Source: Solirubrobacterales bacterium (GTDB lineage: Bacteria > Actinomycetota > Thermoleophilia > Solirubrobacterales > Solirubrobacteraceae). Taken from it: 35,062 nucleotides of DNA. The stretch covers positions 1 to 35,062 of the forward strand of contig DAHUYZ010000020.1 in the NCBI GenBank assembly GCA_027306855.1, read 5' to 3'. Both the position numbers and the translations under genes were made by a program. Of this stretch, positions 10,023 to 34,033 are shown piece after piece (the stretch's first letter is position 1; each line of letters opens with the position of its first letter). Below the pieces are notes generated by a model. That model worked only from the letters and a program-made list of their open reading frames with translations, was not told the DNA's origin and did no database searches.

Positions 10023-10090
10023 CTTCGAATCGCCCACCCACAGCTTTCGTCGGGTCGTTCACCGGAGATACCGCCAGCATCGTCAGGCCC

Positions 10091-10813
10091 ATGACCGACC
10101 CGCAGATCCTCATCGTCAGCCCGGCCAACACCGCGGCCGGACGAGTGGGCCGGGTCGTCCGGGATGTAACGCGTGCTTTGCCGATGGCCGACGTGCTCGT
10201 GGTGGACGACGGCTCAGCCGATCGAACGGCGGCCGAGGCATCGGAAGCCGGGGCCATCACGCTGTCCTTACCGGTCAATTCGGGCTATGGCGCCACGCTG
10301 CAGACCGGCTATAAGTACGGGGTTCGCCACCACTACGACGTCATCGGCCAGATCGATGGGGACGGCCAACATCAGGGCGAGTATCTGCCGGTCATGCTAG
10401 AGGCATTACGCCAAGCCGATGCCGATCTCGTCGTCGGATCGCGTTTTCTTGATAGGGACGGCCACTACCGCCCATCGCTGGCCCGTCAAGTCGGCATCGG
10501 ACTGTTCGCCCGAGTCGCATCGGTCGTGACGCGACAACACATCTCGGATCCGACGTCAGGGTTTCAGCTGATGCGCATCGGCGTCGCGCGCTTCTTCTGC
10601 TCCGAGGTCTACCCTACCGACTACCCCGATGCCGACATCTTGATCCTTCTTCATCGTGCAGGCTTCAAAGTACTCGAGGTTCCAGTAAAGATGCGTCCGT
10701 CGTCTGGAAAGTCGATGCATTCCGGTCATCGCAGTCTCTACTACGTTTACAAGATGACCCTGTCGATCTTGGTAACCCTGTTGCGACCCCGTTCCCAACA
10801 TCGCGCATCATGA
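10091..10813 (+). CDS. GT2 polyprenyl-phosphate sugar synthase-like
   Basis: 240-residue GT2 enzyme of the dolichyl/polyprenyl-phosphate mannose or glucose synthase type. VLVVDDGSADRT (35-46) binds the nucleotide, QIDGDGQH (87-94) is the metal-binding DXD region, and SDPTSGFQLMR (152-162) is the conserved acceptor-side motif. Unlike larger relatives it has no added membrane domain, only a hydrophobic C-terminal segment (SILVTLL). The stop overlaps the DUF2304 start in an ATGA (10810-10813), so the two are translationally coupled, an association common in this family. It probably charges the lipid carrier with a sugar for the GT-C-like protein divergent from it. Sugar identity cannot be told from sequence. 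Confidence 0.88.
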   Translation: MTDPQILIVSPANTAAGRVGRVVRDVTRALPMADVLVVDDGSADRTAAEASEAGAITLSLPVNSGYGATLQTGYKYGVRHHYDVIGQIDGDGQHQGEYLPVMLEALRQADADLVVGSRFLDRDGHYRPSLARQVGIGLFARVASVVTRQHISDPTSGFQLMRIGVARFFCSEVYPTDYPDADILILLHRAGFKVLEVPVKMRPSSGKSMHSGHRSLYYVYKMTLSILVTLLRPRSQHRAS

Positions 10814-11211
10814 TCAGTACGCATCTGCGCATCGTCGCGATCGTCGGCAGCCTGGGGCTCTTACTGTTCGTCATCGAGCTGGTGCGCCGTCGCCGTCTGA
10901 AGGAGGAGTACTCAGTACTCTGGATGGCCACCGCCGTCGTTCTCCTCCTGCTCGCCGCTTGGGGTGGACTACTACGCAGTCTGACACACGCGATCGGCGC
11001 GGTCGCGCAGAGCAGTACGCTGTACTTCTTTGGGCTGCTATTTGTGATCTTTTTGTTGCTCCATTTCTCGGTAAGAGTCAGCCTTCTCGAGCGCCGCCTC
11101 ACGGCGCTGGTACAGGAGATTGCTCTCCTCACGGAGAAACGCGCCGGGCCTGCTCAGCATGAGGAGGAACTTGCAGAGGAGGCCCCCGAGGACGACGCGG
11201 TAAACGCGTGA
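10810..11211 (+). CDS. DUF2304 membrane protein
   Basis: 133 residues with three hydrophobic helices (about 8-22, 38-55 and 70-88) and a charged acidic tail (EEELAEEAPEDD). The pattern of ELVRRRRLKEEYSVLW after helix 1, a second helix and a short coiled-coil tail (LLERRLTALVQEIALL) is characteristic of DUF2304 proteins. These typically sit next to polyprenyl-phosphate GT2 synthases, as here. No catalytic residue is known for the family; a role as membrane anchor or partner of the soluble GT2 upstream is an inference. Start and stop both form 4-bp overlaps with the neighbours (ATGA upstream, GTGA downstream), so it is a middle gene of a tightly coupled operon. Confidence 0.85.
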   Translation: MISTHLRIVAIVGSLGLLLFVIELVRRRRLKEEYSVLWMATAVVLLLLAAWGGLLRSLTHAIGAVAQSSTLYFFGLLFVIFLLLHFSVRVSLLERRLTALVQEIALLTEKRAGPAQHEEELAEEAPEDDAVNA

Positions 11212-12044
11212 GTCAAGTCGCGGTCATAATCCCTTGCCACAATGATGGCTTGCTGGTCGAGGAGGCAGTAGTTTCTGTCCGGGAACAGGAGAACACCGAG
11301 GTCGAGCTGGTCATCATCGATGACGCATCCACGGACTCAACAACGATCACGCGACTCGCCGCCCTGGAGCGTAGCGGGGTACGGGTGCTCCGGCTGGAGC
11401 GTAATCTGGGGCCTGGCCCAGCTCGATCGATAGGACTGCGTCATACCTCGGCTCCCTTCGTCTATCCGCTGGATGCCGACGACGTCCTCGTTCCGGGAGC
11501 ATTGACGGCCATGATCGGGACGTTGAACCGTCACCCAACCGCAGGCTTTACTTGGGGAGATTACGCCGTGTTCGGCAGCATGCGCGGCCGATACAAATCG
11601 CCGAGCCGGCCCCTGCCGTGGACACTCACCTACGTAAACCCCTATCCCGTCTGCTCGATGTTCCACCGCGACGTCTTGGTACGCGCCGGAGGGTGGCAAC
11701 TCGCGCAGGGATACGAGGACTGGGATCTATGGATGACGCTCGTAGAGATGGGCGTCGTCGGGATCCCGACCGACCGCGTCGTATACCGGCGCCGCATCCA
11801 TGGAGGGCACCGGCGTCTAACTGTGGACCGCAGACGCCACAAGGCACTCTACGCGACACTCCAAGAACGGCACTCTGAGCTCTTTGCTCAACGCAACGAC
11901 TTACGCCACGAGGAGATGCCAGCAGCCTGGAAGCGTTTAGCTTACCCTGTTCTTTTCGGGTCGCGATCGATTGTACCGCTGCCTGTCGAGAGGCTCATGT
12001 TGCATGCGATGTTACGGCTCGGTGGCGGACTACCAACATGGTAG
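11208..12044 (+). CDS. GT2 glycosyltransferase
   Basis: 278-residue family 2 glycosyltransferase. VIIPCHNDGLLVEEA (6-20) and LVIIDDASTDST (34-45) form the nucleotide-binding start, YPLDADDVL (86-94) carries the metal-binding motif, and YEDWDLWMTLVEMG near residue 170 supplies the catalytic-base region. It starts with GTG at 11208 overlapping the DUF2304 stop as GTGA, and its end overlaps the flippase start by seven bases, so the four genes from 10091 to 13555 are one coupled operon. It has no clear membrane helix and probably adds one sugar to the lipid-linked intermediate on the cytoplasmic face. Donor and linkage unknown. Confidence 0.88.
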   Translation: MSQVAVIIPCHNDGLLVEEAVVSVREQENTEVELVIIDDASTDSTTITRLAALERSGVRVLRLERNLGPGPARSIGLRHTSAPFVYPLDADDVLVPGALTAMIGTLNRHPTAGFTWGDYAVFGSMRGRYKSPSRPLPWTLTYVNPYPVCSMFHRDVLVRAGGWQLAQGYEDWDLWMTLVEMGVVGIPTDRVVYRRRIHGGHRRLTVDRRRHKALYATLQERHSELFAQRNDLRHEEMPAAWKRLAYPVLFGSRSIVPLPVERLMLHAMLRLGGGLPTW

Positions 12045-13555
12045 CTGGCAACAACGCTCCGCCGAGGACACATACAAGCATCGGCGAGAATATCCTCGTC
12101 AGTACGATCAACGTTGTCGCTGTCGTCGGCGCCTCATTGGTCGCTGTCCCTTTGATCATCGACCACATCGGCCTCGCGGGCTATGGACTTTGGACGCTCG
12201 GCCAGTCGTTTGTTATCTACGTGAGCACGGTCGAGCTCGGAGTTGGACCTGCGATATCCAGGTTTGTGAGCGTCCGTCATCGAGAGCACCACGAGGTTTT
12301 ACCAATACTCTGGCTCGCGCTCGGCCTCTATGCGCTCGCCGGACTGGCTCTCATAGTCGTCGCGCATTTCGTGTCAGAACCTCTGGTCGCCCTGTTCAAA
12401 GTCCCGCTTCGGTTTCATTCCGACGCGATCCGCATGACGCAGATATTGGGCTTTGTGGCGTTCGCCGCACTGATGGCCGCCGCGCTCGGACAGGTACTCA
12501 TCGGCCTGGAGCGTTACCGACCGATCACGGTCACGAACGCAACCGGCTCCGGCGTCTTCCTAGGCGCGCTGCTTATCCTGCTTCCGGGGCAAGCGCAACT
12601 GACAGATGTAGCGGACGCTGCGCTGGCGCAGTGGACGGTAGTTGCCGTCACACGTGGCGCTGTCCTGCTGCCGCTGGTGCGCTCCGAACGTCCGCGACTG
12701 CCCGGCTGCGGCACGGTTCGCGAACTGGCCGACTTCTCCGCCCGTCTGCAGGTTGCTGTCATGGCCACGCTGTTCAACACACAGACAGACCGGATCGTCG
12801 TCGGCCTTGTCTCCACAGCCAGGATTCTCGGACAGGTCGGCATTGCGACGCAAGTGGCCGAAGCCAGCCGTTTCCTTGCAAACTCGGCTTTGGCTCCGCT
12901 GATGACCCGCATGGCGGTCACCTACGGCGCCAGCGGCCGCGACGAGCTTGACGCCCTATATGGGCAGTTGCTCAGGCGCTGGCAGCTGCTGATCGTCGGC
13001 TCGCTCGCCATTCTGACGGCTGTGATGCAGCCGATGATCACCGCGTGGCTCGGACCAGGCCACGGCCAGGCCGCCTACTTCGCCGTGCTCCTGACGATCG
13101 CATACGGCTGCAACCTCCTCATGGGTCCGGCCATCGCCTACCTCCGAGCCATCGGCAGACCCGGCTACGAGGGCGTCTACGGCGTCGCGACGGTGGTCGC
13201 CAACGTCCTTTTGACGATCGGCCTGGGGGTGGCGTTTGGGGCCGACGGCGTCATCATCGCAACGCTCATCGCCTACTTGGTGAGCACAATCTGGTTCTCT
13301 CGCCGAGTCGCGGCGCAACTCCCCAGGGTTCCCGAAACGCATCGGACACAGTGGACACGTTCACTAATGGTTCTGATCGTCGCCGCAGCGATCGCGCTCG
13401 GCATTGGACGAATCAGTGTCCTCGCGCTACCGACCGGGCTCGCTGTCGTGGGTGTGGGCCTTGGCGTAACGGTCGCCTTCCTAGTCTACCTGGCGTCAGT
13501 GGTGGGACTAACGCCTATGGTGGGCACAGTGAGACGACTACTACCTACGCGCTGA
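12038..13555 (+). CDS. Wzx-type polysaccharide flippase
   Basis: 505 residues with about 12-14 hydrophobic helices spread evenly, the length and layout of MOP/PST-family flippases that carry undecaprenyl-linked glycan units across the membrane. The N-terminal segment (ENILVSTINVVAVVGASLVA, then PLIIDHIGLAGYGLWTLGQS) matches the family pattern of a first helix followed by a GxxxYGLW-like loop. Mid-protein TDRIVVGL and C-terminal paired helices also fit. The start overlaps the upstream GT2 by seven bases. A flippase in the same locus as an ABC-type O-antigen exporter (22.9-25.0 kb) suggests two export routes or two glycans. The next gene is convergent, 74 bases away, with no clear terminator between. 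Confidence 0.85.
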   Translation: MVAGNNAPPRTHTSIGENILVSTINVVAVVGASLVAVPLIIDHIGLAGYGLWTLGQSFVIYVSTVELGVGPAISRFVSVRHREHHEVLPILWLALGLYALAGLALIVVAHFVSEPLVALFKVPLRFHSDAIRMTQILGFVAFAALMAAALGQVLIGLERYRPITVTNATGSGVFLGALLILLPGQAQLTDVADAALAQWTVVAVTRGAVLLPLVRSERPRLPGCGTVRELADFSARLQVAVMATLFNTQTDRIVVGLVSTARILGQVGIATQVAEASRFLANSALAPLMTRMAVTYGASGRDELDALYGQLLRRWQLLIVGSLAILTAVMQPMITAWLGPGHGQAAYFAVLLTIAYGCNLLMGPAIAYLRAIGRPGYEGVYGVATVVANVLLTIGLGVAFGADGVIIATLIAYLVSTIWFSRRVAAQLPRVPETHRTQWTRSLMVLIVAAAIALGIGRISVLALPTGLAVVGVGLGVTVAFLVYLASVVGLTPMVGTVRRLLPTR

Positions 13556-13629: not shown

Positions 13630-14592
13630 CTACATCTTTGTAGCTGTCGAGCGATACCATTCGATCGTGCTGCAAAGCCCGTCTTTGAGGTCTGTTTGAG
13701 CTTCAAAGCCAATCAGCTCCCGCGCTCGCGAAACGTCGAGGCAGCGCGTCGGCTGGCCATCGGGCTTTGAGGTGTCCCACACTATGCTTCCTGTATAGTC
13801 GGTCAACCGCGCGATGAGTTCAGCCAGATCACGGATACGAGTTTCGATGCCCGTCCCGATGTTCACCGGTACTGACGCGTCGAGATGCTGCGCCGCGAGT
13901 AACAGAGCACGGGCGGCGTCATCGACATACAGGAACTCACGAGACGGGCTGCCGCTTCCCCACATGACCACCTCGGGTGCCCTACTCTTTTGCGCTTCAT
14001 CGAACTTGCGGATCATGGCGGGGATGACGTGGGAGTCCTCGAGCGAAAAGTGGTCGCCGGGGCCATACAGGTTCACAACCACCGGAACACAAGAGTTGAA
14101 GTCGTACTGACTCCGGTAGGTCTCGGACAGCACCAGCATCATCTTCTTTGCCAGGCCGTATGGAGCGTTGGTCTCCTCCGGGTACCCGTCCCAGATATCC
14201 CCCTCGGAGAACGGCGTAGGCGTAAACTTTGGATAGGCACAGACGGTACAGGCCGAAACTAGCTTGCTGACCCCGGCAAGACGGGACTGCTCAAAGACAT
14301 TGGCCGCCATCATCATGTTGTCGTAGACCAGCGGCGCAGGGTTGCGACGATTGAAACCTATGCCTCCCACGTTGGCAGCGAGATGGATAACTATCTCCGC
14401 ACCATCGACCGCGGCACGTGCGGCGACCGGGTCACGAAGATCGTGTTCGGCAGATCGCACAATTTTTACATCGGCTCCGAGCGTTTTCAGGTCACGCACG
14501 AGCGCGGTTCCGACAAATCCGGCTCCTCCTGTGACAACCACCGGCAGGTCGCGCCAGAACGGTGCATTCGGCTGTCCATTTAGATCCCGCAT
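13630..14592 (-). CDS. GDP-L-fucose synthase-like NAD-dependent epimerase/reductase
   Basis: 320-residue extended short-chain dehydrogenase/reductase. TGGAGFVG (21-28) is the Rossmann dinucleotide loop, SACTVCAYP (113-121) carries the catalytic Ser/Thr-Cys region, and Y145-GLA-K149 is the YxxxK pair. HLAANVGGIGFN, VNLYGPGDHF and GSGSPSREFLYVDDAA are typical of GDP-L-fucose synthase (WcaG/Fcl), which turns GDP-4-keto-6-deoxymannose into GDP-L-fucose by epimerisation and reduction. Related 4-keto reductases share much of this pattern, so the exact sugar is not certain. No GDP-mannose 4,6-dehydratase gene lies in the window, so the substrate must come from elsewhere. The start lies one base beyond the stop of the 1232-residue fusion upstream, so the two are co-transcribed and probably coupled. 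Confidence 0.85.
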   Translation of the reverse strand: MRDLNGQPNAPFWRDLPVVVTGGAGFVGTALVRDLKTLGADVKIVRSAEHDLRDPVAARAAVDGAEIVIHLAANVGGIGFNRRNPAPLVYDNMMMAANVFEQSRLAGVSKLVSACTVCAYPKFTPTPFSEGDIWDGYPEETNAPYGLAKKMMLVLSETYRSQYDFNSCVPVVVNLYGPGDHFSLEDSHVIPAMIRKFDEAQKSRAPEVVMWGSGSPSREFLYVDDAARALLLAAQHLDASVPVNIGTGIETRIRDLAELIARLTDYTGSIVWDTSKPDGQPTRCLDVSRARELIGFEAQTDLKDGLCSTIEWYRSTATKM

Positions 14593-14593
14593 T

Positions 14594-17500
14594 TCAATCC
14601 TTCCCCTCTCCTGAACGAGGTGCCGGCTGCCCTGAGTCGTTTGAGCACTCTATGGACGCTGGCTCGCCGGTGTCCAGGTCTATGTAGCATCGGCGTTGCG
14701 GGTCGGCAGGATGATGGTAGGCACGCTGGAAGTAGTTGGGATATCCGCCGACAGTGACCTCATCGGCACTTGGAAAGCGCCCCTCGGCCAGATCGCCACG
14801 CACAAAGAAGGCATTGACCGCGCACAGGTCAGTGTGCACGAGCTGGTAGCCCTTGCGTCGACCGAGCTCGCGCAGCGCCCCGAGAGACGCGCCGTAGTAA
14901 TCGGTCCCGTCCCAGCCGGAGGTCAGGTCCCGTGGCTGCACGAGCTTGCGGGCAGGGTCGAGCGCGCTGTTGTACTCGATGACCACGACCCGTGGCCGGT
15001 AGTGCTCGACGGACTCCCATATCCAGTAGTCGGCGCCATCGACGTCGATCGACAGCACACTCGGCTCCGGTGGTACATGGGCATCGGCGAACAGCGTCTC
15101 GACATTGGCCGGCGTGACGATCGCCTTCGTGGTCTGTACGCGATCGTTGGCGCGGTACTTGAGCGCAAGGCGCCCGAAGTGGCTGGCGTCGGACTCCATG
15201 AACAGACCACTCCAGCCGACCACGTCGGCCAGGTACACGCAGTTGCCCTCGCGACCGGACTCGGTGCCGAACTCGATGAAGTAGCACTCACCGGCCCCAA
15301 TCCGAGTCAGGATCTCCGCCAGCACACCGTCCTCGCCGTTCTGGCTGAACACCCGCAGCTCGAACGGCGTGAGGGGACCGGTGCGTTCATTCTCAGCTTG
15401 ACCCTCGCCCAGCACATCGTAGCGCTCGCTCATCTGGGCCAACGCCAGATAGAACGCACGGTCGGATTCCAGACCACCGCCCATCTCCATGCGATCGACG
15501 CGACCGCCCAGCGCTGTGAGCGTTCGCATGACGTCGCCGACCACCTCGCTCTGGGCACCCACGACCGCCGGTAGCACCTTCAACTGCTCCTGTGAGCGCA
15601 AACGCGCCAGGATCTGGGCGTTAGATCGCAACAGGCGCTCATGCAGTGCCGAGGTCTCCACCTCGACGGCATGCAGCGATCCAAGCAGTTCGTCATCGAT
15701 CGCCTGCTGGTGGGCGCTGAGAGGGCGCATCAGTCGAAGCGCGCTCTTACGCGCAGCACGACGAACGACGTTCCGACCGGCCGGCAGGCTTGCGCCTGGT
15801 CCTTGCGTGACACGCGCAGTCAGATCACCGCTGACGACCCGCGCTCCATCGGATGCCGACACCTCGCGCAACTTCGTATCTGAGCGCAGATGATCGAGCC
15901 TTTGGCTCATCGCTTCGCCGGCTGCGGTCGGTGAATGCGTCGTGCGAATCGCTTCGGCCGCACGGCCCCCAAGCGCCGCCGCCGCGACGCGATCGTCGTA
16001 GACAAGACGCATAAGCTCGGCCGCATGCTCGACGCTGGGCTCAGCCCACTCCCCATCAGGCGGGTATGGAGGCGCGCCCGCACCAATCGGCACGAGACCG
16101 TAGTCGACCAGCAAGCTGTTCTCGGCGGTCATGAAATCGAGGTTGCCGGAGTAGCCGGTTGCAATCACGGGCTTACCCAGATACATAGCCTCGGCCATCG
16201 TGAGGCCAAACCCCTCCGAGCGATGCAGCGACACGTAGCAGTCGCATGTGGCGGTGAGAGCATTCTTGTCGTTGGGAGTCATGTAGTTGTCGACGACGCG
16301 GATATCGCTGCGCGCTTTGACTGCGGCGAGGAGGCGCTCGTGGTTTGCCGCGTCATGTTCGGCATTCATGCACTTGATAACCAGATTAGGGCCGCTGCCG
16401 GAATCGAATGCGCGGGAGAACGCCTCCACAACTGCGATCGGGTTCTTGCGCTCGAACACACTGAGATAGTCGAACGTAAACAGGAAGCAAAACCCGTCGG
16501 GAATGCCCAACTCGGCCCGCGAGCGCGGAACGATCGTGGGAACCTCAACCGGGATGCGAGTCGTCGTTACCGGGACACTCGCTACCGGTGAGAGCGCATC
16601 CGCGACATGGGCTGTCGGCGCCCACACCTCGTCCACCAGCGCGAACGAGCTCAGCCACTTGCTTGGAAAGCTCGTCACCTCCCAGAACCACAGGCCGATC
16701 GAGTAGCGGTCCGCGAAAAAGCTCTCCCCCGCCCTGCGGGCGAACTCAGGCAGCATGTCGGCGTTTACGCAGATAACGTTTATTTGGTACTCGGCTTCAT
16801 CGGGCTCGAACTGAACGAAGTCATGTTCCTGGCGGCTCAGTGGCCGCATTGCGCTGTGCACCGGCAGCAACGAGACGCCAGCCGCGTCGAGCGCCGCTAT
16901 CACCTGCCGCGCCACCTCCCCGACTCCATGCTCGGATTGAAAGTAACCAACGACATTCACACCCACACTCCGTGGGCCCACGCCATCTGCGGCTGTGTCC
17001 GCCACGACCGAGCCACGCGCATCAGCCTCCTCACCTTCCCCGTCGACCTCCGAGGAGCGAGCCGATTCGACCTGAGCCGCGACCAGATCGTGCGTTGCGG
17101 TGTCGATTGCCGGAAGCAGCGCCAGCATCGGCGTCTCGATCGTGCCCGATCGCTTCGCCCAATCCAAGAACGCCTGGTGGTCGGCGCCCGCGACGTCCGG
17201 AAAGCCTCTTTGAACATCTTCCCTGGTGCCATAGACATCGGCCAGCAGCCGGCTCACTCCGGCCGGCGCCCCTGGGGCGGGCGCGGCCAGCCAGCGCACG
17301 AACGACTCGCACCCCTCGTCGCTGAACGGCGATCCCACGACCTCGCCGTGTTCGCTGGCGACACCGTGCAGCTTGCGCAACTGCCGGGTGAACTCGACGC
17401 CGATGGGAAGATGCGCGTATGTGTAGGGCCATGCCTTCGCCTTGGTGTATCCGGCGGCAACGACCTCTGCCGCGTACTCATTGCAGATCCGCTGCAGAGC

Positions 17501-18292
17501 AGGACGGCCGCTCATCGAAAGCCTCGACTGATGACGGCTCAGCACTTCAGGCGCTTCCGGGTCAAAGCCACTGAAGTGAAAGAACGCAAGCTCGTGGCCA
17601 TCGGCGGTGTAGCCACCGTCAGCGTATCCCAGCTCGCGCGTGTGCAGGTTCCAATAGGCGACGTTGTACTGCGGATCGCGCACCACCGCATGATCGGACA
17701 CGAGACCCGGAGCGAGATCGAACCAGCGCTGGTCAACAAAGTAGCCGTTGGAGGGATCGACCCTGCAGTCGTGCAGCAGCCGGTGCTCCCACCACCCCAA
17801 CAACTTCTCCGTCTCATCGTCCCACCTCAGAGACACGTATCCCAAGTTGTATACCCCCGCCAGCAGGATGTCGATCTGGTTTGGGCGCTCGCCGTCATCT
17901 GGCAACGGCTCGGTGTTGTGCGGAGTGAGAACGACGCGGTGCGCCAGCGCAAGCGCGTCGAGCTGGTTGAGTGAGCCGTAGATGCGAATGTCAGGATCGA
18001 GATAGGTAATCGTGTCTCTGTCCCCGCTCAACAGGTGACGAAGCAGCCATGGCTTCACGGCGGTTGACAGCTCGAGCACGTCGTAGCGGAGCGCCATCTC
18101 CTCGAACTCATCACATCCGATCTGGGCAGGAGTCAGGATCTCAAAGGGCTCGGAGTTAGGCTCGATATAGCCGTCAAAGTCATCGATCACGAGCGCGAAG
18201 CAACGCCCGCCTGGATGCTGCTCGATGAATGAGCTCGCCAGCACTCGTGCCTGCGCGACGTAGTTCTTCGCGATGATCGTGCAGATATCCAC
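14594..18292 (-). CDS. three-part fusion: GT-A transferase, GT4, FkbM-like methyltransferase
   Basis: 1232 residues. Residues 1-300 form a GT-A-type glycosyltransferase resembling GT8, with the metal motif YLDPDI (97-102) and a conserved start MDICTIIAKNYVAQARVLA. Residues about 440-805 are a GT4 domain: GYFQSEHGVGEVAR (449-462) and RSEGFGLTMAEAM (691-703), where E693 and E701 are the EX7E pair. Residues about 860-935 are likely coiled coil. Residues about 975-1200 match FkbM-like methyltransferases: FSQNGEDGVLAEIL (982-995), YFIEFGTESGREGN (1004-1017) and LSIDVDGADYW (1080-1090). It probably adds two sugars and a methyl group to one chain, a cap or repeat-unit arrangement. It starts with GTG at 18292, eight bases after a GATAAT box. 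It is followed at once by the fucose synthase-like gene. Order of action is inferred. Confidence 0.88.
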   Translation of the reverse strand: MDICTIIAKNYVAQARVLASSFIEQHPGGRCFALVIDDFDGYIEPNSEPFEILTPAQIGCDEFEEMALRYDVLELSTAVKPWLLRHLLSGDRDTITYLDPDIRIYGSLNQLDALALAHRVVLTPHNTEPLPDDGERPNQIDILLAGVYNLGYVSLRWDDETEKLLGWWEHRLLHDCRVDPSNGYFVDQRWFDLAPGLVSDHAVVRDPQYNVAYWNLHTRELGYADGGYTADGHELAFFHFSGFDPEAPEVLSRHQSRLSMSGRPALQRICNEYAAEVVAAGYTKAKAWPYTYAHLPIGVEFTRQLRKLHGVASEHGEVVGSPFSDEGCESFVRWLAAPAPGAPAGVSRLLADVYGTREDVQRGFPDVAGADHQAFLDWAKRSGTIETPMLALLPAIDTATHDLVAAQVESARSSEVDGEGEEADARGSVVADTAADGVGPRSVGVNVVGYFQSEHGVGEVARQVIAALDAAGVSLLPVHSAMRPLSRQEHDFVQFEPDEAEYQINVICVNADMLPEFARRAGESFFADRYSIGLWFWEVTSFPSKWLSSFALVDEVWAPTAHVADALSPVASVPVTTTRIPVEVPTIVPRSRAELGIPDGFCFLFTFDYLSVFERKNPIAVVEAFSRAFDSGSGPNLVIKCMNAEHDAANHERLLAAVKARSDIRVVDNYMTPNDKNALTATCDCYVSLHRSEGFGLTMAEAMYLGKPVIATGYSGNLDFMTAENSLLVDYGLVPIGAGAPPYPPDGEWAEPSVEHAAELMRLVYDDRVAAAALGGRAAEAIRTTHSPTAAGEAMSQRLDHLRSDTKLREVSASDGARVVSGDLTARVTQGPGASLPAGRNVVRRAARKSALRLMRPLSAHQQAIDDELLGSLHAVEVETSALHERLLRSNAQILARLRSQEQLKVLPAVVGAQSEVVGDVMRTLTALGGRVDRMEMGGGLESDRAFYLALAQMSERYDVLGEGQAENERTGPLTPFELRVFSQNGEDGVLAEILTRIGAGECYFIEFGTESGREGNCVYLADVVGWSGLFMESDASHFGRLALKYRANDRVQTTKAIVTPANVETLFADAHVPPEPSVLSIDVDGADYWIWESVEHYRPRVVVIEYNSALDPARKLVQPRDLTSGWDGTDYYGASLGALRELGRRKGYQLVHTDLCAVNAFFVRGDLAEGRFPSADEVTVGGYPNYFQRAYHHPADPQRRCYIDLDTGEPASIECSNDSGQPAPRSGEGKD

Positions 18293-18331: not shown

Positions 18332-20695
18332 TCATGCCCCGCTGCGCAGACCCTTGCGATCGGAACGGTCGTCCCCGTTGAGGCGCCGCGATGCGCCCGC
18401 ACGCCCGAGCAGGCTTAGGGGGGCAAGGATCAGAGCACGCGAGAGACGACGCGATGCGATCCGCATGAGGCCGCGCTGCTGTGTCGTCGTTAGCAATCCC
18501 CCCTCATCGATCAGCGGCAACCCGTGCGCAACGCGCGCTCTGAGGGAGTGGTAGGCGTCCTGGTACTCCTGGGCAATGGACTTGAGGTGCGCGATGTCGG
18601 CATCGAGACTGGCGATGAAGATCTCACGGTCGAGCTCCTGCCAGGCTCTGGGGGCAGCCTCCGACGACGGCTCGGCGACGGCCCGCCGGTACACCTCGCT
18701 CAGCTGCTGGGCAACCTCACGCCAGCTGGGCAGCTCAAGCCCGCGGAGTCGGGCAAGATGCTCCTCGCGAGCCGGGCGATCGGCAAGCAGTGGCAGCACG
18801 GCGGCAGCGCTTGTCTTGGGGTCCCAGGGCCGCAGGGTCGCGGCCCTCCCGGCCAGCTCCGCCAGAGACGCCTGCGCGGCGAAAAGGCACGGCAGACCGG
18901 CTCTGGCGGCCTCCAGAGGCAGCAGGCCAAACCCCTCGTAGAGGGTCGGATAGAGAAGCGCGCGGGCATGCCGGTACAGCCAACGCTTGCCCGGCTCGTC
19001 CACCGGCCCGACGTCGATGACGCGATCGCGAAGCGCCGGATCGCGCTCCAGCAGCTCAGACTCCGCCTCACGCGAGGAGCCAACCGGGACATGGCTGCCG
19101 GCGAGCACAAGGCATCCCTGCCACCCAAGCTCACCCAGAGCGCCGATCAGCTCGATCGCAAACGGACGGTTCTTGTGCGCGTAATCGGCGCCCATGCAGA
19201 GTAGGAAGGGGCGATCGCCGGGCACGCCGCCCGGCTGTATCTCCCTGCCCTCGGGCTCGACGGCCTCTGCCCCGACGCCCACAACGTGCGTGCGCTCAGC
19301 TGGCAGCAGGTCCTCGGCCAGCGCGTCACGGCGAGCGTGCTCGGAGAAGAACACGACCTGGTCGGCGACGGCCAGCGCAAGTCGCGTCGTACGCCGATAG
19401 GCGCGCCACCGCTCGATGTCTTGGTGGTAGGAGTAGTTGTGGTAGGCGATCAGATCCTGCTGCCCGATCACGACCCGCCTGCCCACCAGCCTCAACAGGG
19501 CCAGATCGTCCGCGGTGAACGCCTGTTGAGGGCGATGCACGACATCGCTGAGCGGCGGCTCTTTGAGAGCTTCGTCATAGCTGAGGAGCTCCAGATCGGG
19601 GAGATCGTCAAGCGCTTGCTTGGCGCGCACCGAGAGATCGTGCGGCACGAGCACCCTCAGCGCGACGTCGCCCTCGCGCGCCAGCGCCGCGATCAGTTCG
19701 AGCACATACGTCTGCGTGCCGCCGACGACCGAAGTCAGCGAGCGTCCGTCGATTGTCACAGACAGCGGTCGCAGCGCGGCCCGCGCAATGCCCAAAGCCC
19801 TGCTCAGCCGACCGCGCTCATCGCGCGCAAGCGTCCGTGCAATGCGCTCGACACCATCTCGTCCGTCCTCACCGTCCGACCCAAGCGAGCGCTCGCTCGA
19901 CACCGGCGCAAAGCCCGAATCGGGAGACCGCATCACGAGCACATCGTCGGCGGCAGCGTGAGCCATACCCACGCCGATCGCTCGCGCCGCCAGATCGGCA
20001 AGCGCATCGTCGAGCCCAAGCGACCCATCGAGCGGACCCAGCAGCTCGAGCGCGCCCCGGCGGATGTAGGCGCAGCCTGGACCAATCGTCGCTATCCGCG
20101 GCCACAGGCGCAGGCAGCGTGCCGAGACCCGCTCAGCTTCCCGGGCAAGCGTGGCGGTCCTCGCAAGGCGCTCGCCTGACATAGATGTGTGCGACTCGCC
20201 GGCGTCATCCAGCAGCTCGACGCCGCCGACGCCGAGCGACAGTGGTGTCGCGCTTGCGACGGTGCAGTCGCTGAGCGCCGCGGCTCGTAGGCCTGTCAAC
20301 CATCCCGAAGCCACCTCAACGCCGATCCTCACAAGCGCCAGATCAGCGGGGCAGCTCGCGTGGACGGCCGCGTTGAACGCCTCGGTCTCGCCGTCCTTCT
20401 CGACGAGCGTCAGCGTGTGGACCTGACGCGTCGTGTCGCCCGGTCCGAGTCCTCGACCTTTCACGGCCCGCGCGATGCCGGCCTCTGATCCGACGAGCAG
20501 CAGGGGCGTCGCAGGGTTGGTGTTCGCCGCCACGCTGCTCAGCGTCGTATCCAACGGGTCGATGAGCGATGGGAATCCATCCTCAGCATCGACGAGAACG
20601 CATACGACGACCGATCCGCGCTCGAGCTCGAGCTCGCCTGCTGCGAGGGCTCCGGTCCACATCAGACGCCCCAGAGTACCTGGCATCCGCGGCAT
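18332..20695 (-). CDS. two-part glycosyltransferase, GT2-like plus GT4
   Basis: 787 residues from the ATG at 20695. Alternatives are ATG 20686, ATG 20662, which follows a TACTCT box by ten bases, and an upstream TTG at 20746. The N-terminal about 260 residues look like a GT2/GT-A fold (DPLDTTLSSVAANTNPATPL, then a GSLGLDDALADLAARA region), but no clear DXD motif is visible and its activity is doubtful. The C-terminal half, about 310-675, is a good GT4: VTIDGRSL, GGTQTYVLELIAALAREGDV, FLLCMGADYAHKNR and YEGFGLLPLEAARAGLP with both EX7E glutamates. A short alpha-helical tail follows. The 39 bases to the next minus-strand gene (1232-residue fusion) suggest an operon. Divergent from the ABC pseudogene 35 bases away. 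Likely role: adding one or two sugars during glycan assembly. Confidence 0.82.
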   Translation of the reverse strand: MPRMPGTLGRLMWTGALAAGELELERGSVVVCVLVDAEDGFPSLIDPLDTTLSSVAANTNPATPLLLVGSEAGIARAVKGRGLGPGDTTRQVHTLTLVEKDGETEAFNAAVHASCPADLALVRIGVEVASGWLTGLRAAALSDCTVASATPLSLGVGGVELLDDAGESHTSMSGERLARTATLAREAERVSARCLRLWPRIATIGPGCAYIRRGALELLGPLDGSLGLDDALADLAARAIGVGMAHAAADDVLVMRSPDSGFAPVSSERSLGSDGEDGRDGVERIARTLARDERGRLSRALGIARAALRPLSVTIDGRSLTSVVGGTQTYVLELIAALAREGDVALRVLVPHDLSVRAKQALDDLPDLELLSYDEALKEPPLSDVVHRPQQAFTADDLALLRLVGRRVVIGQQDLIAYHNYSYHQDIERWRAYRRTTRLALAVADQVVFFSEHARRDALAEDLLPAERTHVVGVGAEAVEPEGREIQPGGVPGDRPFLLCMGADYAHKNRPFAIELIGALGELGWQGCLVLAGSHVPVGSSREAESELLERDPALRDRVIDVGPVDEPGKRWLYRHARALLYPTLYEGFGLLPLEAARAGLPCLFAAQASLAELAGRAATLRPWDPKTSAAAVLPLLADRPAREEHLARLRGLELPSWREVAQQLSEVYRRAVAEPSSEAAPRAWQELDREIFIASLDADIAHLKSIAQEYQDAYHSLRARVAHGLPLIDEGGLLTTTQQRGLMRIASRRLSRALILAPLSLLGRAGASRRLNGDDRSDRKGLRSGA

Positions 20696-20715
20696 CGGAC
20701 CGTCACGAGCCCATA

Positions 20716-20730
20716 TACCCTCTCGCGAAG
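20716..20730 (+). promoter_or_regulatory. -10 box retained by the ABC pseudogene
   Basis: TACCCT at 20716-20721 is followed by nine bases and the ATG at 20731. The intact ABC gene has the same TACCCT hexamer seven bases before its ATG at 22872, so the promoter context was conserved between the two copies. Confidence 0.4.
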
Positions 20731-20975
20731 ATGGCCTCCAAGCCAAGCACTTCGACGCAGACGCCCGCGCTGGTCGCTCAGGGCATCCACAAGACCTTCC
20801 GGGTGCCGGAGGAGCGCATGCATACGCTCAAGGAGCGCGCGCTGCACCCGTTTCGCCGCATCGGCCACCAGACGTTCCCGGCGCTGAAGGACATCTCTTT
20901 GAGGTCGGGCGCGCCAAGTTCTTCGGGATCGCCGGCCATACGGCTCGAGCAAGAGCCGTCTGGCGAGGCAAGCTT
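20731..20975 (+). pseudogene. ABC transporter ATPase (Wzt-like), decayed 5' copy
   Basis: From ATG 20731 the frame reads an alternative N-terminus, then HKTFRVPEER-HTLKERALHP and FPALKDIS. This is clearly the start of an O-antigen-type ABC ATPase and a paralogue of the intact gene at 22872. A base is missing after DISF, so the frame shifts: the sequence then reads EVGRAKFFGIAGH, the normal run-up to Walker A. The GRNGSGKST codons can still be aligned by eye but are broken by further small indels. Homology fades at about 20975, where the opposing Schlafen gene ends. A 31-bp block (20820-20850 and 22955-22985) is identical between the copies, while flanking DNA differs at roughly 15-20 percent. 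So this is an older duplicate, not a recent one. Nothing downstream of Walker A remains. Confidence 0.8.
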
Positions 20976-22871: not shown

Positions 22872-24128
22872 ATGCCCCAACCGGCCAGCTCCTGCGCCCC
22901 GGCGATCGTCGCCGACTCCCTCACCAAGGCCTTCCGCGTCCCCGAGGAGCGTACGCATACGCTCAAGGAGCGCGCGCTGCACCCGCTGCGTCGCACACGC
23001 CACCACACGTTCCCGGCGCTGCGCGACATCTCCTTCGAGGTCGCTCGCGGCGAGTTCTTCGGCATCGTCGGACGCAACGGCTCGGGCAAGAGCACGCTCT
23101 TGAAGTGCCTGGCGGGTATCTACGGGGTCGATCATGGCCAGATCTGGATGGACGGCCGCCTCTCGACGTTCATCGAGCTCGGCGTCGGCTTCAATCCAGA
23201 CCTCGCCGCGCGAGACAACGTCGTGCTCAACGGGATCATGATGGGGCTCTCCCCACGCGAGGCGCGCGCACGCTACGACGCCGTGATCGACTTCGCCGAG
23301 CTGCGCGAGTTCGAGGAGCTGAAGCTCAAGAACTACTCCTCGGGAATGCACGTGCGACTCGCGTTCTCGGTCGCGATCCAGGTCGACGCCGACATCCTGC
23401 TCGTCGACGAGGTGCTGGCGGTCGGCGACGCCTCCTTCCAGCAGAAGTGCTTCGACGTGTTCTATCGCCTCCGCGACGAGGGACGGACGATCGTATTTGT
23501 GACGCACGACATGGGCTCGGTCAACCGCTTCTGTCACCGGGCGCTGCTCTTGGAGAAAGGCGAACAGGCCTATCTCGGCGATCCCTACGAGGTGGCCGAT
23601 CGCTACTTGGAGATCAACTTCGGACGCGAGCCGCAACAGGCGGGGCCTATCATCGACGAACACCGCGGCGGCGATGGCCAGGCACGCGTTCTCGAAGCGT
23701 GGGCGCAGGACGAAAACGGGCGACGCGTGGGCTCGCTGCAGCAGGGCCGGCGTATGACAGTGGTCGCGCTTGTCGAGTTCAAAGCGGATGTCGAAGATCC
23801 GGCCGCGAGCGTGCAGCTGCTCAACGACGATCACATGGTGGTAGCCGTCGCCACAAGCGCCGCAGCACACGAACGCAGCGGCCATTTCCACACAGGCGAG
23901 CGCGCTCTGTTCTCGTTCTCGTTCGACAACGTTCTGGCGCCACGACGCTACAGCACGCTGTTCACGCTCGCGCATCGCGGCACCGGCCTCGACCTCATGG
24001 ATCGCATCGACGACGCATTCTCGTTCGTCGTCACCGGCCCCCGTGCACTCGGGGGCATCGTCGATCTCCCGGTCGATGTCAGCGTCGAACGCGTTTCAGC
24101 TCAGGCGGCACAGGAGGTTGCGCTTTGA
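22872..24128 (+). CDS. polysaccharide ABC exporter ATPase with Wzt-like C-terminal domain
   Basis: 418 residues from ATG 22872, which follows a TACCCT box; earlier in-frame starts run into the Schlafen promoter and are unlikely. The ATPase domain is complete: Walker A GRNGSGKST (67-75), signature NYSSGMHVRLA (154-164), Walker B DILLVDEVLAVGD (174-186) and H-loop H212. The E-L-G-VGFNPD---RDN--LNG stretch (102-121) is typical of the TagH/Wzt/RfbE group. Residues about 260-410 form a beta-rich domain like the Wzt carbohydrate-binding domain, which recognises the finished chain end. Together with the permease overlapping its stop it would pump lipid-linked glycan across the membrane. The C-terminal domain suggests that a terminal modification, possibly the methyl group added by the 1232-residue fusion, is the export signal (inference). 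Confidence 0.93.
   Translation: MPQPASSCAPAIVADSLTKAFRVPEERTHTLKERALHPLRRTRHHTFPALRDISFEVARGEFFGIVGRNGSGKSTLLKCLAGIYGVDHGQIWMDGRLSTFIELGVGFNPDLAARDNVVLNGIMMGLSPREARARYDAVIDFAELREFEELKLKNYSSGMHVRLAFSVAIQVDADILLVDEVLAVGDASFQQKCFDVFYRLRDEGRTIVFVTHDMGSVNRFCHRALLLEKGEQAYLGDPYEVADRYLEINFGREPQQAGPIIDEHRGGDGQARVLEAWAQDENGRRVGSLQQGRRMTVVALVEFKADVEDPAASVQLLNDDHMVVAVATSAAAHERSGHFHTGERALFSFSFDNVLAPRRYSTLFTLAHRGTGLDLMDRIDDAFSFVVTGPRALGGIVDLPVDVSVERVSAQAAQEVAL
24112..24117 (+). promoter_or_regulatory. strong ribosome-binding site fixing a TTG start
   Basis: AGGAGG at 24112-24117 lies seven bases before the TTG at 24125. This settles the start of the permease, because no ATG is found at a fitting distance. 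It lies inside the end of the ABC ATPase gene, so the two are translationally coupled. Confidence 0.75.
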
Positions 24129-25027
24129 GCTATCAAGTCGCCGAGCTCGAGACGTCCGCCTATGGATCCTCGCTTGGCCATCCGATCCGTGGACCGCGCG
24201 CGCTGAGCGACGACTGGTCGCGCTTCTGGCACCTCACCTACAACATCGCGCGCAACGAATTCAAGCTGAAGTTCTTCGGCTCGATATTGGGCTATTTGTG
24301 GCAGGTGATGAGGCCATTACTGCTGTTTGGCGTGCTGTATGTGTTCTTTGTGGTCATCGGCCATGTCGGCAAGGGCGGCAAGCCGGGAGAAACCGCCTAC
24401 GGCGTCCAGCTGCTCGGCTCGATCGTGCTCTTTACGTTCTTCAGCGAAGCCACCACCGGGGCGGTACGCAGCGTCGTGGACCGCGAGAACCTCGTGCGCA
24501 AGATTCAGTTCCCTCGACTGGTCATACCCATGTCGGTATGCCTCCTCAGCTTCTTCAACCTGGTCATGAACCTGATCGTCGTGCTGATCTTTGCCCTGAT
24601 CTCGGGTATACAGCCGATGCTCAGCTGGATCGAGCTGCCCCTGATCCTCACGCTGCTGATTGTGCTCTCTACGGGCGTCGCGATGCTCCTATCGGCCATG
24701 TTCGTCAGCTTCCGCGACATACAGCCGATATGGGATGTCCTTACGCAGGTCCTCTTCTACTCGTCTCCGGTGATCATCCCTGTGGAAACGGTGCGCGACA
24801 AGCTGCTGCACGAGCCGCTGCTCTGGCACATCTACCTGCTGAACCCGCTCGTCACGATCTTCCAGCAGTTCCGCCACGCAATGGTCACCCACGCCGCGCT
24901 GTCAGCCGGGCAGACCCTTGGAAGCTGGGCCGATCTGCTGGCGCCGCTCGGCATCGTCGCCGCAATCTTTCTGCTCGGCTTCTGGGTCTTCAACCGCTCG
25001 GCGCCCCACGTCGCCGAGAATCTTTGA
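24125..25027 (+). CDS. polysaccharide ABC exporter permease (ABC-2 type, Wzm/TagG-like)
   Basis: 300 residues with six hydrophobic helices, typical of ABC-2 permeases for O-antigen or teichoic acid. The soluble start (LSDDWSRFWHLTYNIARNEF) is followed by KLKFFGSILGYLWQVMRPLL, the conserved amphipathic and first-helix pattern. Mid-protein ENLVRKIQFPRLVIPMSV and the YSSPVIIPVETV and LNPLVTIFQQFRHAM segments are also family marks. It starts at TTG 24125 in a TTGA overlap with the ATPase stop and has an AGGAGG seven bases upstream. Together the two make one complete exporter. No further gene follows on this strand until the antitoxin at 25115, so the operon probably ends here. Confidence 0.93.
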   Translation: MSYQVAELETSAYGSSLGHPIRGPRALSDDWSRFWHLTYNIARNEFKLKFFGSILGYLWQVMRPLLLFGVLYVFFVVIGHVGKGGKPGETAYGVQLLGSIVLFTFFSEATTGAVRSVVDRENLVRKIQFPRLVIPMSVCLLSFFNLVMNLIVVLIFALISGIQPMLSWIELPLILTLLIVLSTGVAMLLSAMFVSFRDIQPIWDVLTQVLFYSSPVIIPVETVRDKLLHEPLLWHIYLLNPLVTIFQQFRHAMVTHAALSAGQTLGSWADLLAPLGIVAAIFLLGFWVFNRSAPHVAENL

Positions 25028-25665: not shown

Positions 25666-27726
25666 CTACCCCGGTAGAGGCTCAACCTTTCGCGGCCGCG
25701 CCACTCCCTCCAGGAACGCCTCCAGCGCGTCGATCCGCCGCTCCCAGGCGTACTCGGCGGCCGTCTCGATCCCAGACCTGCCCAGACGCTCACGCAGATC
25801 GCCGTCGGACAGCAGGCGCGCGATCGCCTCGCTGACGGCGTTGCGATCGGGCTCGGGCATCAGGCAGTTCTCGCCGTCCTTGCAGAAGTCGCGATTGCCG
25901 TGGGCGTCGGTGCAGACGACCGCGCCGCCCGTCGCCATCGACTCCAGCGCCGGCAAACAGAAGCCCTCGTGCGTCGAGGTCTGCACGAACACGGCCGCTT
26001 CGCTGAACAGCTCCCCCACCTGCTCGTCGCTCGGGGACTCCACGTAGCGCATGCCCTCGTCGGTCGCAAGCTCAGGCTCGATCCCGAACATGCACAGCTC
26101 CGGCCGCGGCTCCGGCAGCGATCGCCACGCCTCGATCGTGAGCGCCAGGTTCTTCAGCGGATTGGTGCGCCCGATCGCGAGCACCATGTCCTTGCGGCGA
26201 GCCACATCGCCGCGCGGTCTAAATGTTTCGAGGTCGATACCCGGCGCAATCAGCTCCGCGTCCAGGCCCAGCTCGCGCAACCGGTCCTTGTTCCAGCCGG
26301 AGATCGTCATGTAGCGGAACTCCGGCCGATACGAGTCGATCACGGCGTGCCTGACCGACTCGTCGTCGGGGTAGTAGCTCGTCTCGATGTCCTGCACGAA
26401 GTAGACCGATATGCCCTTGACGACGCTCGAGCGCCAGACCGGCATCGCCGTGTTCCACCAGGTCGCAACCTTGATCGCGTCGAGACCGGACAGCTCCTGC
26501 ATCAGTTCGTCGTAGAACTCGAAGCTGCGCACCGGCACGCGCAGCTCGAACCAGTCGGGCCGCTCCCCCAGCGTGTACAGAGCGACCTCGTGCCCCCGCT
26601 CGGCCAGGCGGTTGAGGTGCTCGAAGATGTCGCGGTGCCCGCCGCCGACGCCCGTGTCCTCGGTCACGTAGACGACCCTCAGCTTGCCGTCCTCGGTGCG
26701 GACGTCCCGCGCGTCGAAGAACTCGCCCCAGCGCTCCCAGAACAGGCGCTGCGAGGTCCGCTCGCGCTCGCCGACCTCGGTCCCCCTCGTCACCGACTCG
26801 TGGTGGTAGAGGCTTGCGCCCGGGAAGTACACGACCCTCATCCCCGCCTGCCAGGCGCGCAGGCACCAGTCGACGTCCTCATAAGCCATCGGATAGCGCT
26901 CGTCCATCACGCCGATCCGCTCGATCGCCTCGCGTGTCACGTACATGCAGGCGCCCGTCACGGCCAGCACCGGGCCGGGCAAGGCGGCGGGGCCCCAGTC
27001 GGCCGGCTTGAAGCGGTAGCGGTGATCGAACCACTCGAGCGCCCCAAGGTTGCGCTGGGTGCCCGCGAACTGGATGCGCCCGTCCGGATACAGCAGCCGC
27101 GCACCCACGATCGCGACGTCGTCCTGGAGGCTCGCCGCGTACTGCAGGCACGCAAGCCACCCCGTCAGCGCCTCCATGTCCGAGTTGAGCACGACCACGT
27201 CCAGCTCAGGGTCCGCCGCGCTCAGCCCGCGGTTCACGTTCGCGGCGAAGCCTTCGTTCTCCTCACCCGCGACGACCTCGACGCCCTCGATCGCATGCAG
27301 CGCCGCCACGTGCTCGGGACCGCTTGCGTCATCGGCGACGATGATCCTCGCCATCCCCTCCGGGACGGTCTTCCTGATGCTCGCCACCAGCTCCTGCACC
27401 CGCTCGGCGTCTCTGAAGCTCGCGATCACGATGCTCACCGGCCGGCCATGCACGCGATACCACGCCACAGCGCGCCTGAAGGCGTCGTGCTCGGGACGCG
27501 AACGCAGATTCAGACGATGCTTGAGCGGCGTAAAGCGCAGCGGGAAGGTGATCGCGCGATACAGCAGCACGCGCCAGCCGAGGTAGTGGTAGGTGAGGTG
27601 GATGCGCCGCCTCAGGTTGGCGAACGGGCCCCGGAGCTCCCCGTCGAGCGCCTTGGAGGCACGCGACTCACGATGGCTTGCCGGTCTCGAAGGACGATTC
27701 TGCTCAGGGCCTTGCTCAGCGGTCAC
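25666..27726 (-). CDS. two-part glycosyltransferase, GT2 plus GT4
   Basis: 686 residues. Residues about 95-330 are a GT2 domain of the rhamnosyltransferase-like kind: VSIVIASFRDAERV (97-110), ADDASG (131-136), NSDME (181-185) and the base-bearing YEDVDWCLRAWQAGMRV (282-298). Residues about 347-680 are a GT4 domain: GVGGGHRDIFEHLNRLAERG (359-378), AIGRTNPLKN (517-526) and STHEGFCLPALESMATGGAV (584-603) with E587 and E595. Between them a charged linker is short. The first about 70 residues include an amphipathic or weakly hydrophobic stretch (YLGWRVLLYRAITFPLRF) that may touch the membrane. It starts with GTG at 27726 overlapping the stop of the upstream GT2 as GTGA. Likely adds two successive sugars. 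It is the last gene of the minus-strand operon. Confidence 0.9.
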   Translation of the reverse strand: MTAEQGPEQNRPSRPASHRESRASKALDGELRGPFANLRRRIHLTYHYLGWRVLLYRAITFPLRFTPLKHRLNLRSRPEHDAFRRAVAWYRVHGRPVSIVIASFRDAERVQELVASIRKTVPEGMARIIVADDASGPEHVAALHAIEGVEVVAGEENEGFAANVNRGLSAADPELDVVVLNSDMEALTGWLACLQYAASLQDDVAIVGARLLYPDGRIQFAGTQRNLGALEWFDHRYRFKPADWGPAALPGPVLAVTGACMYVTREAIERIGVMDERYPMAYEDVDWCLRAWQAGMRVVYFPGASLYHHESVTRGTEVGERERTSQRLFWERWGEFFDARDVRTEDGKLRVVYVTEDTGVGGGHRDIFEHLNRLAERGHEVALYTLGERPDWFELRVPVRSFEFYDELMQELSGLDAIKVATWWNTAMPVWRSSVVKGISVYFVQDIETSYYPDDESVRHAVIDSYRPEFRYMTISGWNKDRLRELGLDAELIAPGIDLETFRPRGDVARRKDMVLAIGRTNPLKNLALTIEAWRSLPEPRPELCMFGIEPELATDEGMRYVESPSDEQVGELFSEAAVFVQTSTHEGFCLPALESMATGGAVVCTDAHGNRDFCKDGENCLMPEPDRNAVSEAIARLLSDGDLRERLGRSGIETAAEYAWERRIDALEAFLEGVARPRKVEPLPG

Positions 27727-33967: not shown

Positions 33968-34033
33968 CGGCAGCTCCGCCAAGTCCTGAAGTCCGAAGCA
34001 CCAATCGTTGACAACCGTTTCATCCCGATGGGC

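What the first reader, a model, noticed from the sequence alone, without database searches (positions are those of the whole stretch)
14594..18292. Three-enzyme fusion in one polypeptide: GT-A transferase, GT4 and FkbM-like methyltransferase
The 1232-residue product holds two separate glycosyltransferase folds and a methyltransferase joined by a likely coiled coil, with all key motifs visible (DPD 99-101, E693/E701, FSQNGEDG 982-989). In ABC-exported O-antigens (for example WbdD-type systems), a terminal methyl group and a coiled-coil ruler set chain length. Here transferases, coiled coil and methyltransferase are in one chain, and the same locus has a Wzt-like ATPase with a carbohydrate-binding domain. 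This could be a self-contained chain extension and capping enzyme (inference).
Basis: partly seen in the sequence, partly recalled or inferred. Interest (0 to 1): 0.75.

Follow-up and report, generated by a model that had tools for sequence, protein, structure and literature searches.

The report
Sugar-chain builder fused to methyl cap
One large bacterial protein joins two sugar-transferring enzymes, a helical spacer and a methyl-transferring enzyme beside an ABC sugar-chain exporter, which suggests that it both builds and caps an exported surface glycan; such all-in-one enzymes are known elsewhere, but this one has the parts in reverse order and its methyl-capping part is swapped between relatives.

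Summary
The 1232-aa gene lies on the minus strand (18292 to 14594). It encodes a GT8-like GT-A domain (YLDPD 97-101), a GT4 domain (E693/E701), an amphipathic RxxLRxMRP motif with a broken coiled coil, and a distant FkbM-type class I methyltransferase (FSQNGEDG 982-989). An ortholog in another genus (58% identity) has the same architecture and neighbours: Fcl downstream, Wzt/Wzm divergent upstream. The fusion is therefore real. In the class, 20 of 25 well-covered loci with the GT8-GT4 fusion lie beside Wzt/Wzm. The C-terminal methyltransferase is exchangeable: FkbM-like here, Methyltransf_11- or Methyltransf_23-type elsewhere, or on a separate protein. The GT4-to-methyltransferase spacing stays at 106-166 aa. 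Best reading: a polymerase-terminator for an ABC-exported glycan, working like WbdD/WbbB/WsaE. Prior art is close: WsaE, Klebsiella O12 WbbB and O7 ORF6 already combine transferases and terminator in one chain. What is new is the reversed order (GT-GT-coil-MT), the unannotated GT8-like module, the swappable caps and the actinobacterial host. No activity is shown; capping, the ruler role and the acceptor are inferred. "Self-contained" is too strong, because other transferases share the cluster.

The parts
14594..18292 (-). Fusion gene, 1232 aa: GT8-like - linker - GT4 - amphipathic motif - coiled coil - FkbM-like methyltransferase
   Evidence: ORF and translation; full-length ortholog at 58% identity in G029 = L043/L063
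17423..18292 (-). GT8-like (GT-A) glycosyltransferase domain, aa 1-290; YLDPD 97-101, NLG 149-151, DQ 187-188, HFSG 239-242
   Evidence: hhalign to GT8 probability 94.6%, E=7e-8 with all four GT8 landmarks aligned; controls E>=0.13
17093..17422 (-). Conserved helical linker, aa 291-400
   Evidence: LNK profile hit shared by nearly all fused homologues
15803..16972 (-). GT4 (GT-B) glycosyltransferase domain, aa 441-830; E693 and E701
   Evidence: Pfam Glycos_transf_1 E=2.6e-11; invariant E693/E701
15668..15769 (-). Amphipathic RxxLRxMRP motif with first residues of the coil, aa 842-875
   Evidence: motif profile in 24 ORFs, nearly all with GT4 and/or methyltransferase; hydrophobic moment 0.56, among the top windows of the protein
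15479..15712 (-). Helical spacer / short coiled coil, aa 861-938, broken near P905
   Evidence: AlphaFold helices 861-899 and 907-938; best heptad windows of the region at 909-938
14597..15475 (-). FkbM-like class I SAM methyltransferase domain, aa 940-1232; FSQNGEDG 982-989
   Evidence: hhalign to FkbM E=6.6e-6; model pLDDT mostly above 90 in the core; PDB fold matches are SAM methyltransferases
13630..14592 (-). Fcl-like nucleotide-sugar reductase/epimerase, next gene of the operon
   Evidence: NCBIfam GDP-L-fucose synthase E=3.9e-80, below its cut-off; adjacent also in L043, 77% identity
18332..20746 (-). 804-aa glycosyltransferase upstream in the same direction (GT4 domain at about 340-690)
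   Evidence: Pfam Glyco_trans_1_4 E=1.6e-10
22872..24128 (+). Wzt: ABC ATPase with Wzt_C carbohydrate-binding domain
   Evidence: Pfam ABC_tran E=6e-20 and Wzt_C E=5.9e-16; start codon placed by eye
24125..25027 (+). Wzm: ABC-2 polysaccharide permease (start uncertain, overlaps the wzt stop)
   Evidence: Pfam ABC2_membrane E=1.9e-16; NCBIfam galactan/KpsM permeases below cut-off
25666..27726 (-). GT2-GT4 glycosyltransferase of the same cluster
   Evidence: Pfam; 66% identical copy beside the ortholog in L043
27723..29045 (-). GT2 glycosyltransferase of the same cluster (true start probably inside this ORF)
   Evidence: Pfam; 53% identical copy beside the ortholog in L043

Best explanation
A one-chain polymerase-terminator for an ABC-exported surface glycan. 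The GT8-like and GT4 modules add sugars to a lipid-linked chain at the inner membrane face. The cationic amphipathic motif (aa 842-858) holds that end of the protein at the membrane. The helical spacer (aa 861-938) holds the FkbM-like methyltransferase away from it. When the non-reducing end of a chain is long enough to reach the methyltransferase, it is O-methylated and growth stops; the Wzt C-terminal domain then recognises the capped end and Wzm/Wzt exports it. Shown by computation: the module identities and order, a class I methyltransferase fold, the conserved operon, and the linkage to Wzt/Wzm. Inferred: the sugars, methylation of the chain end, the membrane contact, the ruler role and recognition by Wzt.
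For: Same architecture and neighbourhood in a second genus. GT8-GT4 fusions beside Wzt+Wzm in 20 of 25 well-covered loci. Class I methyltransferases of three types follow the GT4 domain at a nearly constant 106-166 aa (mostly 147-166). Where the methyltransferase is a separate gene near GT8-GT4 and Wzt, it carries its own basic stretch and coil in front (L061, L144, L167, L179; the motif profile itself recognises L167 and L179), as expected for a WbdD-like terminator unit. The basic motif lies exactly between polymerase and coil; in the known systems an amphipathic helix and polymerase site sit at that end of the coil with the terminator at the distal end. Wzt has a Wzt_C domain. Methyltransferase fold and family. 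Fcl sits in the operon and Gmd in the genome, so a GDP-6-deoxyhexose donor is available.
Against: No activity data. The coil is short and interrupted. The methyltransferase family is mostly not linked to ABC exporters (4 of 80 loci). Some relatives have no methyltransferase in the chain (L050, L051), and 5 of 25 well-covered loci have no Wzt/Wzm within the stretch. Wzt_C similarity tracks methyltransferase type only weakly. The exact architecture is in only 2 of 232 genomes of the order.
Confidence: 0.55

Rival explanations
1. The methyltransferase decorates internal sugars of the growing chain or adaptor (stoichiometric O-methylation), and the fusion only keeps it close to its substrate. It neither stops growth nor sets length.
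For: The FkbM-like family is mostly stand-alone and away from ABC exporters; in Brevibacillus it sits among GDP-mannose/fucose genes and transferases without Wzt/Wzm; the coil is short and broken.
Against: Constant spacer whichever methyltransferase type follows, and separate units of motif + coil + methyltransferase near Wzt fit a terminator better than a random decorator.
Confidence: 0.22
2. The protein makes an adaptor or short oligosaccharide rather than the repeat; the long chain is made by the other transferases of the cluster, and methylation marks the adaptor.
For: Several other transferases share the cluster (25666-27726, 27723-29045, 18332-20746).
Against: Two transferase modules coupled to a putative terminator is the polymerase arrangement in WsaE, WbbB and O7 ORF6; an adaptor enzyme does not need a terminal methyltransferase.
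Confidence: 0.13
3. The product leaves by the Wzx-like flippase encoded at 12038-13555, and the adjacency to Wzt/Wzm is incidental.
For: A Wzx-like protein lies in the same contig; five well-covered GT8-GT4 loci lack Wzt/Wzm.
Against: Wzt/Wzm is the partner kept in the ortholog locus and in 20 of 25 loci; the flippase matches are weak (below their cut-offs).
Confidence: 0.07

Closest known systems
WsaE of Geobacillus stearothermophilus (S-layer glycan; PMC2943079)
   Same: Trifunctional: methyltransferase plus two glycosyltransferase domains in one chain, wzm/wzt genes alongside, 2-O-methyl cap ends the chain
   Different: Methyltransferase is N-terminal there, C-terminal here; [quoted passage not shown] transferase modules here are GT8-like and GT4. 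Direct sequence comparison was not run.
Klebsiella pneumoniae O7 ORF6 (PMC11231755)
   Same: N-terminal methyltransferase, coiled coil and two transferase modules in one polypeptide, with Wzm/Wzt; proposed ruler
   Different: Order reversed; ORF6 also has a kinase and a carbohydrate-binding module and makes methyl-phosphate; its transferases are GT2; no kinase was found here
Klebsiella pneumoniae O12 WbbB (PMC11231755)
   Same: Polymerase modules, coiled coil and terminator in a single chain, ABC export
   Different: Terminator is a Kdo transferase at the N-terminus, not a methyltransferase
E. coli O8/O9a WbdD (PMC3482155, PMC11231755)
   Same: Terminating methyltransferase at one end of a coiled coil, amphipathic helix and polymerase site at the other, Wzt with carbohydrate-binding domain
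   Different: Polymerase WbdA is a separate protein; O9a WbdD also has a kinase; order reversed. The separate motif + coil + methyltransferase proteins in L167 and L179 are the closest parallel in layout
Pfam Methyltransf_21 (FkbM) and Glyco_transf_8 families
   Same: Methyltransferase and N-terminal domain are detectable distant relatives by profile comparison
   Different: This protein scores below the Pfam cut-off or has no hit

Membership tests
ABC-exported, terminator-capped glycan systems with coiled-coil ruler (WbdD/WbbB/O7 ORF6 kind) | Wzm/Wzt exporter in the same locus, Wzt with C-terminal carbohydrate-binding domain | tested here: met
   PF14524 E=5.9e-16, ABC2_membrane E=1.9e-16; Wzt+Wzm in 20 of 25 well-covered loci of the GT8-GT4 fusion
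ABC-exported, terminator-capped glycan systems with coiled-coil ruler (WbdD/WbbB/O7 ORF6 kind) | Terminator enzyme domain at the distal end of a coiled coil, polymerase and membrane contact at the other end | tested here: inconclusive
   Order GT-GT, amphipathic motif, helices, methyltransferase found; coil short and broken; membrane contact not tested
ABC-exported, terminator-capped glycan systems with coiled-coil ruler (WbdD/WbbB/O7 ORF6 kind) | Terminal modification stops growth, sets length and is required for export | not testable with these tools
   Needs glycan analysis and mutants; Wzt_C similarity versus cap type was weak
Glycosyltransferase family GT8 (GT-A fold) | GT8 profile similarity with DxD, NxG, DQ and HxxG landmarks | tested here: met
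   hhalign E=7e-8 with landmarks aligned; no Pfam hit for the window protein itself, 1 of 8 relatives hits Glyco_transf_8 at E=8.5e-4; structure model failed (pLDDT 44.5)
Glycosyltransferase family GT4 | Glycos_transf_1 domain with E-x7-E | tested here: met
   E=2.6e-11 over cut-off; E693, E701 invariant
FkbM methyltransferase family (PF05050) | Pfam score above the curated cut-off | tested here: not met
   17 bits against 22.7; a sister or distant relative by profile comparison, E=6.6e-6
Class I SAM-dependent methyltransferase fold | Rossmann-like SAM-binding fold | tested here: met
   Confident model; the 50 best PDB matches listed are almost all SAM methyltransferases or fibrillarins, E from 1.5e-5. 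SAM binding itself not tested
WsaE | N-terminal methyltransferase followed by two transferase domains | tested here: not met
   Methyltransferase is C-terminal here; works-like claim unaffected
WbdD O9a | Kinase domain between methyltransferase and coil | tested here: not met
   No kinase domain found by Pfam and no room in the spacer; O8 WbdD also lacks it (PMC3482155)

The most novel reading that the evidence does not exclude
Actinobacteria of the Thermoleophilia kind use a modular, one-chain polymerase-terminator in which the capping enzyme is an exchangeable cassette: methyltransferases of at least three types sit at the end of one conserved motif-coil spacer behind an unrecognised GT8-like/GT4 polymerase, giving differently capped, length-controlled ABC-exported glycans in bacteria where this strategy has not been described.
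Probability: 0.35. Interest if true: 0.65.

Novelty: new variant of a known kind. Interest (0 to 1): 0.5.

Why it matters
If right, the methyl-capped, length-controlled ABC export strategy known from Gram-negative O antigens and Firmicute S-layer glycans also exists in poorly studied actinobacteria. There it comes in a natural series: the same polymerase and spacer with different caps, with none, or with the cap unit on a separate protein. That series makes two open questions directly testable: whether spacer length sets chain length irrespective of the cap, and whether Wzt C-terminal domains read the cap. It also adds an unannotated GT8-like subfamily and an FkbM-related methyltransferase family that standard annotation misses.

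Tried and rejected
AlphaFold of the GT8-like domain (3-sequence alignment) failed, pLDDT 44.5; not used. Sequence-profile searches of the PDB with either flanking domain gave nothing significant; 3tzt, a GT8, was the only hit for the N-terminal domain at E=0.53. Family search for PF01501 in 41 near relatives found none, because Pfam GT8 does not see this subfamily; a phylum-wide search then supplied GT8 sequences for the profile comparison. A first FkbM comparison was spoiled by wrong reading frames and was repeated. Assembly artefact rejected: an ortholog in another genus has the same architecture. The idea that the methyltransferase family marks ABC export was rejected: only 4 of 80 loci. 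Co-variation of Wzt_C with methyltransferase type was tested and is inconclusive: the closest Wzt_C to the window's is from the locus with a stand-alone FkbM-like methyltransferase (L054, 51%), but two other FkbM-type loci are among the most distant. A plasmid origin was not supported: plasmid hits cover at most 63% of the protein and are below 60% identity.
Full report
Observation. The ORF is real, on the minus strand, 18292 to 14594, GTG start, 1232 aa. The window is one whole 35,062-base contig of a 2.23-Mb fragmented assembly (259 contigs), probably a metagenome-assembled genome. The named motifs are at the named residues. Pfam detects only the GT4 domain.

Domain 1. Residues 1-290 have no Pfam hit, but a profile of about 50 relatives aligns to GT8 glycosyltransferases over residues 6-252 with probability 94.6% and E=7e-8, placing YLDPD on YLDAD, YNLG on FNSG, DQ on DQ and HFSG on HYTG. 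Controls against GT4, FkbM, Wzm and a methyltransferase profile give E>=0.13. The four landmarks are kept in most relatives; some carry degenerate versions (FIKQE, HLPST in place of YLDPD), which suggests inactive copies. The structure model of this domain failed, so the GT-A fold rests on profile similarity.

Domain 2. Residues 441-830 are GT4 with the E-x7-E pair E693/E701 invariant. Between domains 1 and 2 lies a conserved linker.

Spacer. After GT4 comes a basic, amphipathic motif, RKSALRLMRPLSAHQ, which a small profile finds in 24 ORFs of the studied loci, nearly all of which also carry GT4 and/or a methyltransferase. Its hydrophobic moment is among the top few windows of the protein. AlphaFold then gives helices 861-899 and 907-938 with a break near P905, at moderate confidence. 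So the coiled coil is short and broken rather than one long rod.

Domain 3. Residues 940-1232 form a confident domain (pLDDT mostly above 90 in the core) whose PDB matches are class I SAM methyltransferases. By profile it is a distant relative of FkbM methyltransferases (E=6.6e-6), below the Pfam cut-off on its own. The SQNGEDG family is widespread: 564 confirmed stretches in the species-level genome collection, across many phyla, mostly proteins of roughly 240-350 aa; only 4 of the best 80 lie beside Wzt+Wzm. In Brevibacillus it lies near GDP-mannose dehydratase, Fcl and glycosyltransferases. In Pelotomaculum propionicicum the methyltransferase and a GT8-GT4 protein are separate genes 0.8 kb apart, the unfused version of this protein.

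Surroundings. The gene is followed after one base by an Fcl-like gene and preceded by an 804-aa transferase on the same strand; Wzt (with Wzt_C) and Wzm are divergent at 22872-25027, with GT2 and GT2-GT4 genes beyond. A Gmd above its cut-off is elsewhere in the genome, so GDP-6-deoxyhexose donors are plausible.

Relatives. Of 232 genomes in the order, 15 carry the methyltransferase at E<=1e-10 and two have the exact fusion. In the class, 32 GT8-GT4 fused ORFs were examined. After GT4 they carry the FkbM-like domain (2), a Methyltransf_11-like domain (3), a Methyltransf_23-like domain (8), another GT8-like domain (1), or no domain detected with these profiles (the rest, some of them cut by contig ends or frameshifts). 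The GT4-to-methyltransferase distance is 106-166 aa, mostly 147-166. Of the 25 with at least 18 kb of sequence, 20 have Wzt and Wzm (Pfam on examples). In L061, L144, L167 and L179 a separate Methyltransf_23 protein lies near the GT8-GT4 gene and carries a similar basic stretch and coil in front of it; the motif profile recognises this in L167 and L179. The unit 'motif + coil + methyltransferase' therefore seems to move as a whole and can be fused or free.

Mechanism. In known systems the terminator sits at the distal end of a coiled coil, the polymerase and an amphipathic helix at the other end, and Wzt reads the cap (PMC11231755; PMC3482155). The geometry here is the same with the N-to-C order reversed. 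I therefore commit to a one-chain polymerase-terminator, confidence 0.55. Shown: modules, order, fold of the methyltransferase, operon, linkage. Inferred: sugars, capping, membrane contact, ruler, recognition by Wzt. The main rival is internal methylation (0.22).

Known or new. WsaE (methyltransferase plus two transferases, PMC2943079), O12 WbbB and O7 ORF6 already unite chain building and ending in one polypeptide. This is a new variant: reversed order, different transferase families, an FkbM-related cap enzyme, cap modules that are exchanged behind a nearly constant spacer, and an actinobacterial host. The literature searches found no description of this architecture in the open-access library; subscription papers were not searchable.

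Limits. Many of the sampled relatives are fragmented assemblies, gene calls are mechanical, counts depend on contig ends, and the class search scored few candidates per genome. Start codons of Wzm, the 804-aa transferase and some GT2 genes are uncertain.

Noticed in passing
20978-22762 (-): Schlafen/AlbA_2-type protein (SLFN_AlbA_2, HATPase_c_4, DUF5635) sits between the transferase operon and wzt; it is absent from the same place in the ortholog locus L043.
   Followed up: partly
12038-13555 (+), 11208-12044 (+), 10091-10813 (+): A Wzx-like flippase with two GT2 genes on the other strand: a second possible export route in the same contig.
   Followed up: no
7698-10037 (-) and 28730-31129 (-): Two large membrane-protein-like ORFs (779 and 799 aa) without Pfam hits, with homologues in many of the related loci; possibly GT-C-type transferases or polymerases.
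   Followed up: no
L044:6088-13050: GT8-like domain found four times in tandem genes/fusions in G036, one copy in the place of the methyltransferase.
   Followed up: no
class loci, GT8-like domain (e.g. L057, L060, L061): Several relatives have lost the DxD (for example ALGAE, HLPST, FIKQE), which suggests inactive GT8-like domains kept as structural parts.
   Followed up: partly
5232-6458 (-) and 32537-33982 (-): AlgX/SGNH-like acetyltransferase-type protein and a glycoside-hydrolase-like protein with a Big_7 domain flank the glycan cluster.
   Followed up: no
about 25116-25300 (+): Start of a small ORF that looks like a ribbon-helix-helix antitoxin (MRTTVTLDPDVAARL...), just after wzm; read by eye only.
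   Followed up: no
L086:258-4749 (Pelotomaculum propionicicum): Unfused version: SQNGEDG methyltransferase, two other methyltransferase-like genes and a GT8-GT4 protein as neighbouring separate genes.
   Followed up: partly
L235 (Azospirillum sp. B510 plasmid pAB510f): GT8-GT4-like protein beside dTDP-rhamnose genes, a 5-kb transferase gene and a class I methyltransferase, with a type I secretion system and no Wzt annotated.
   Followed up: partly
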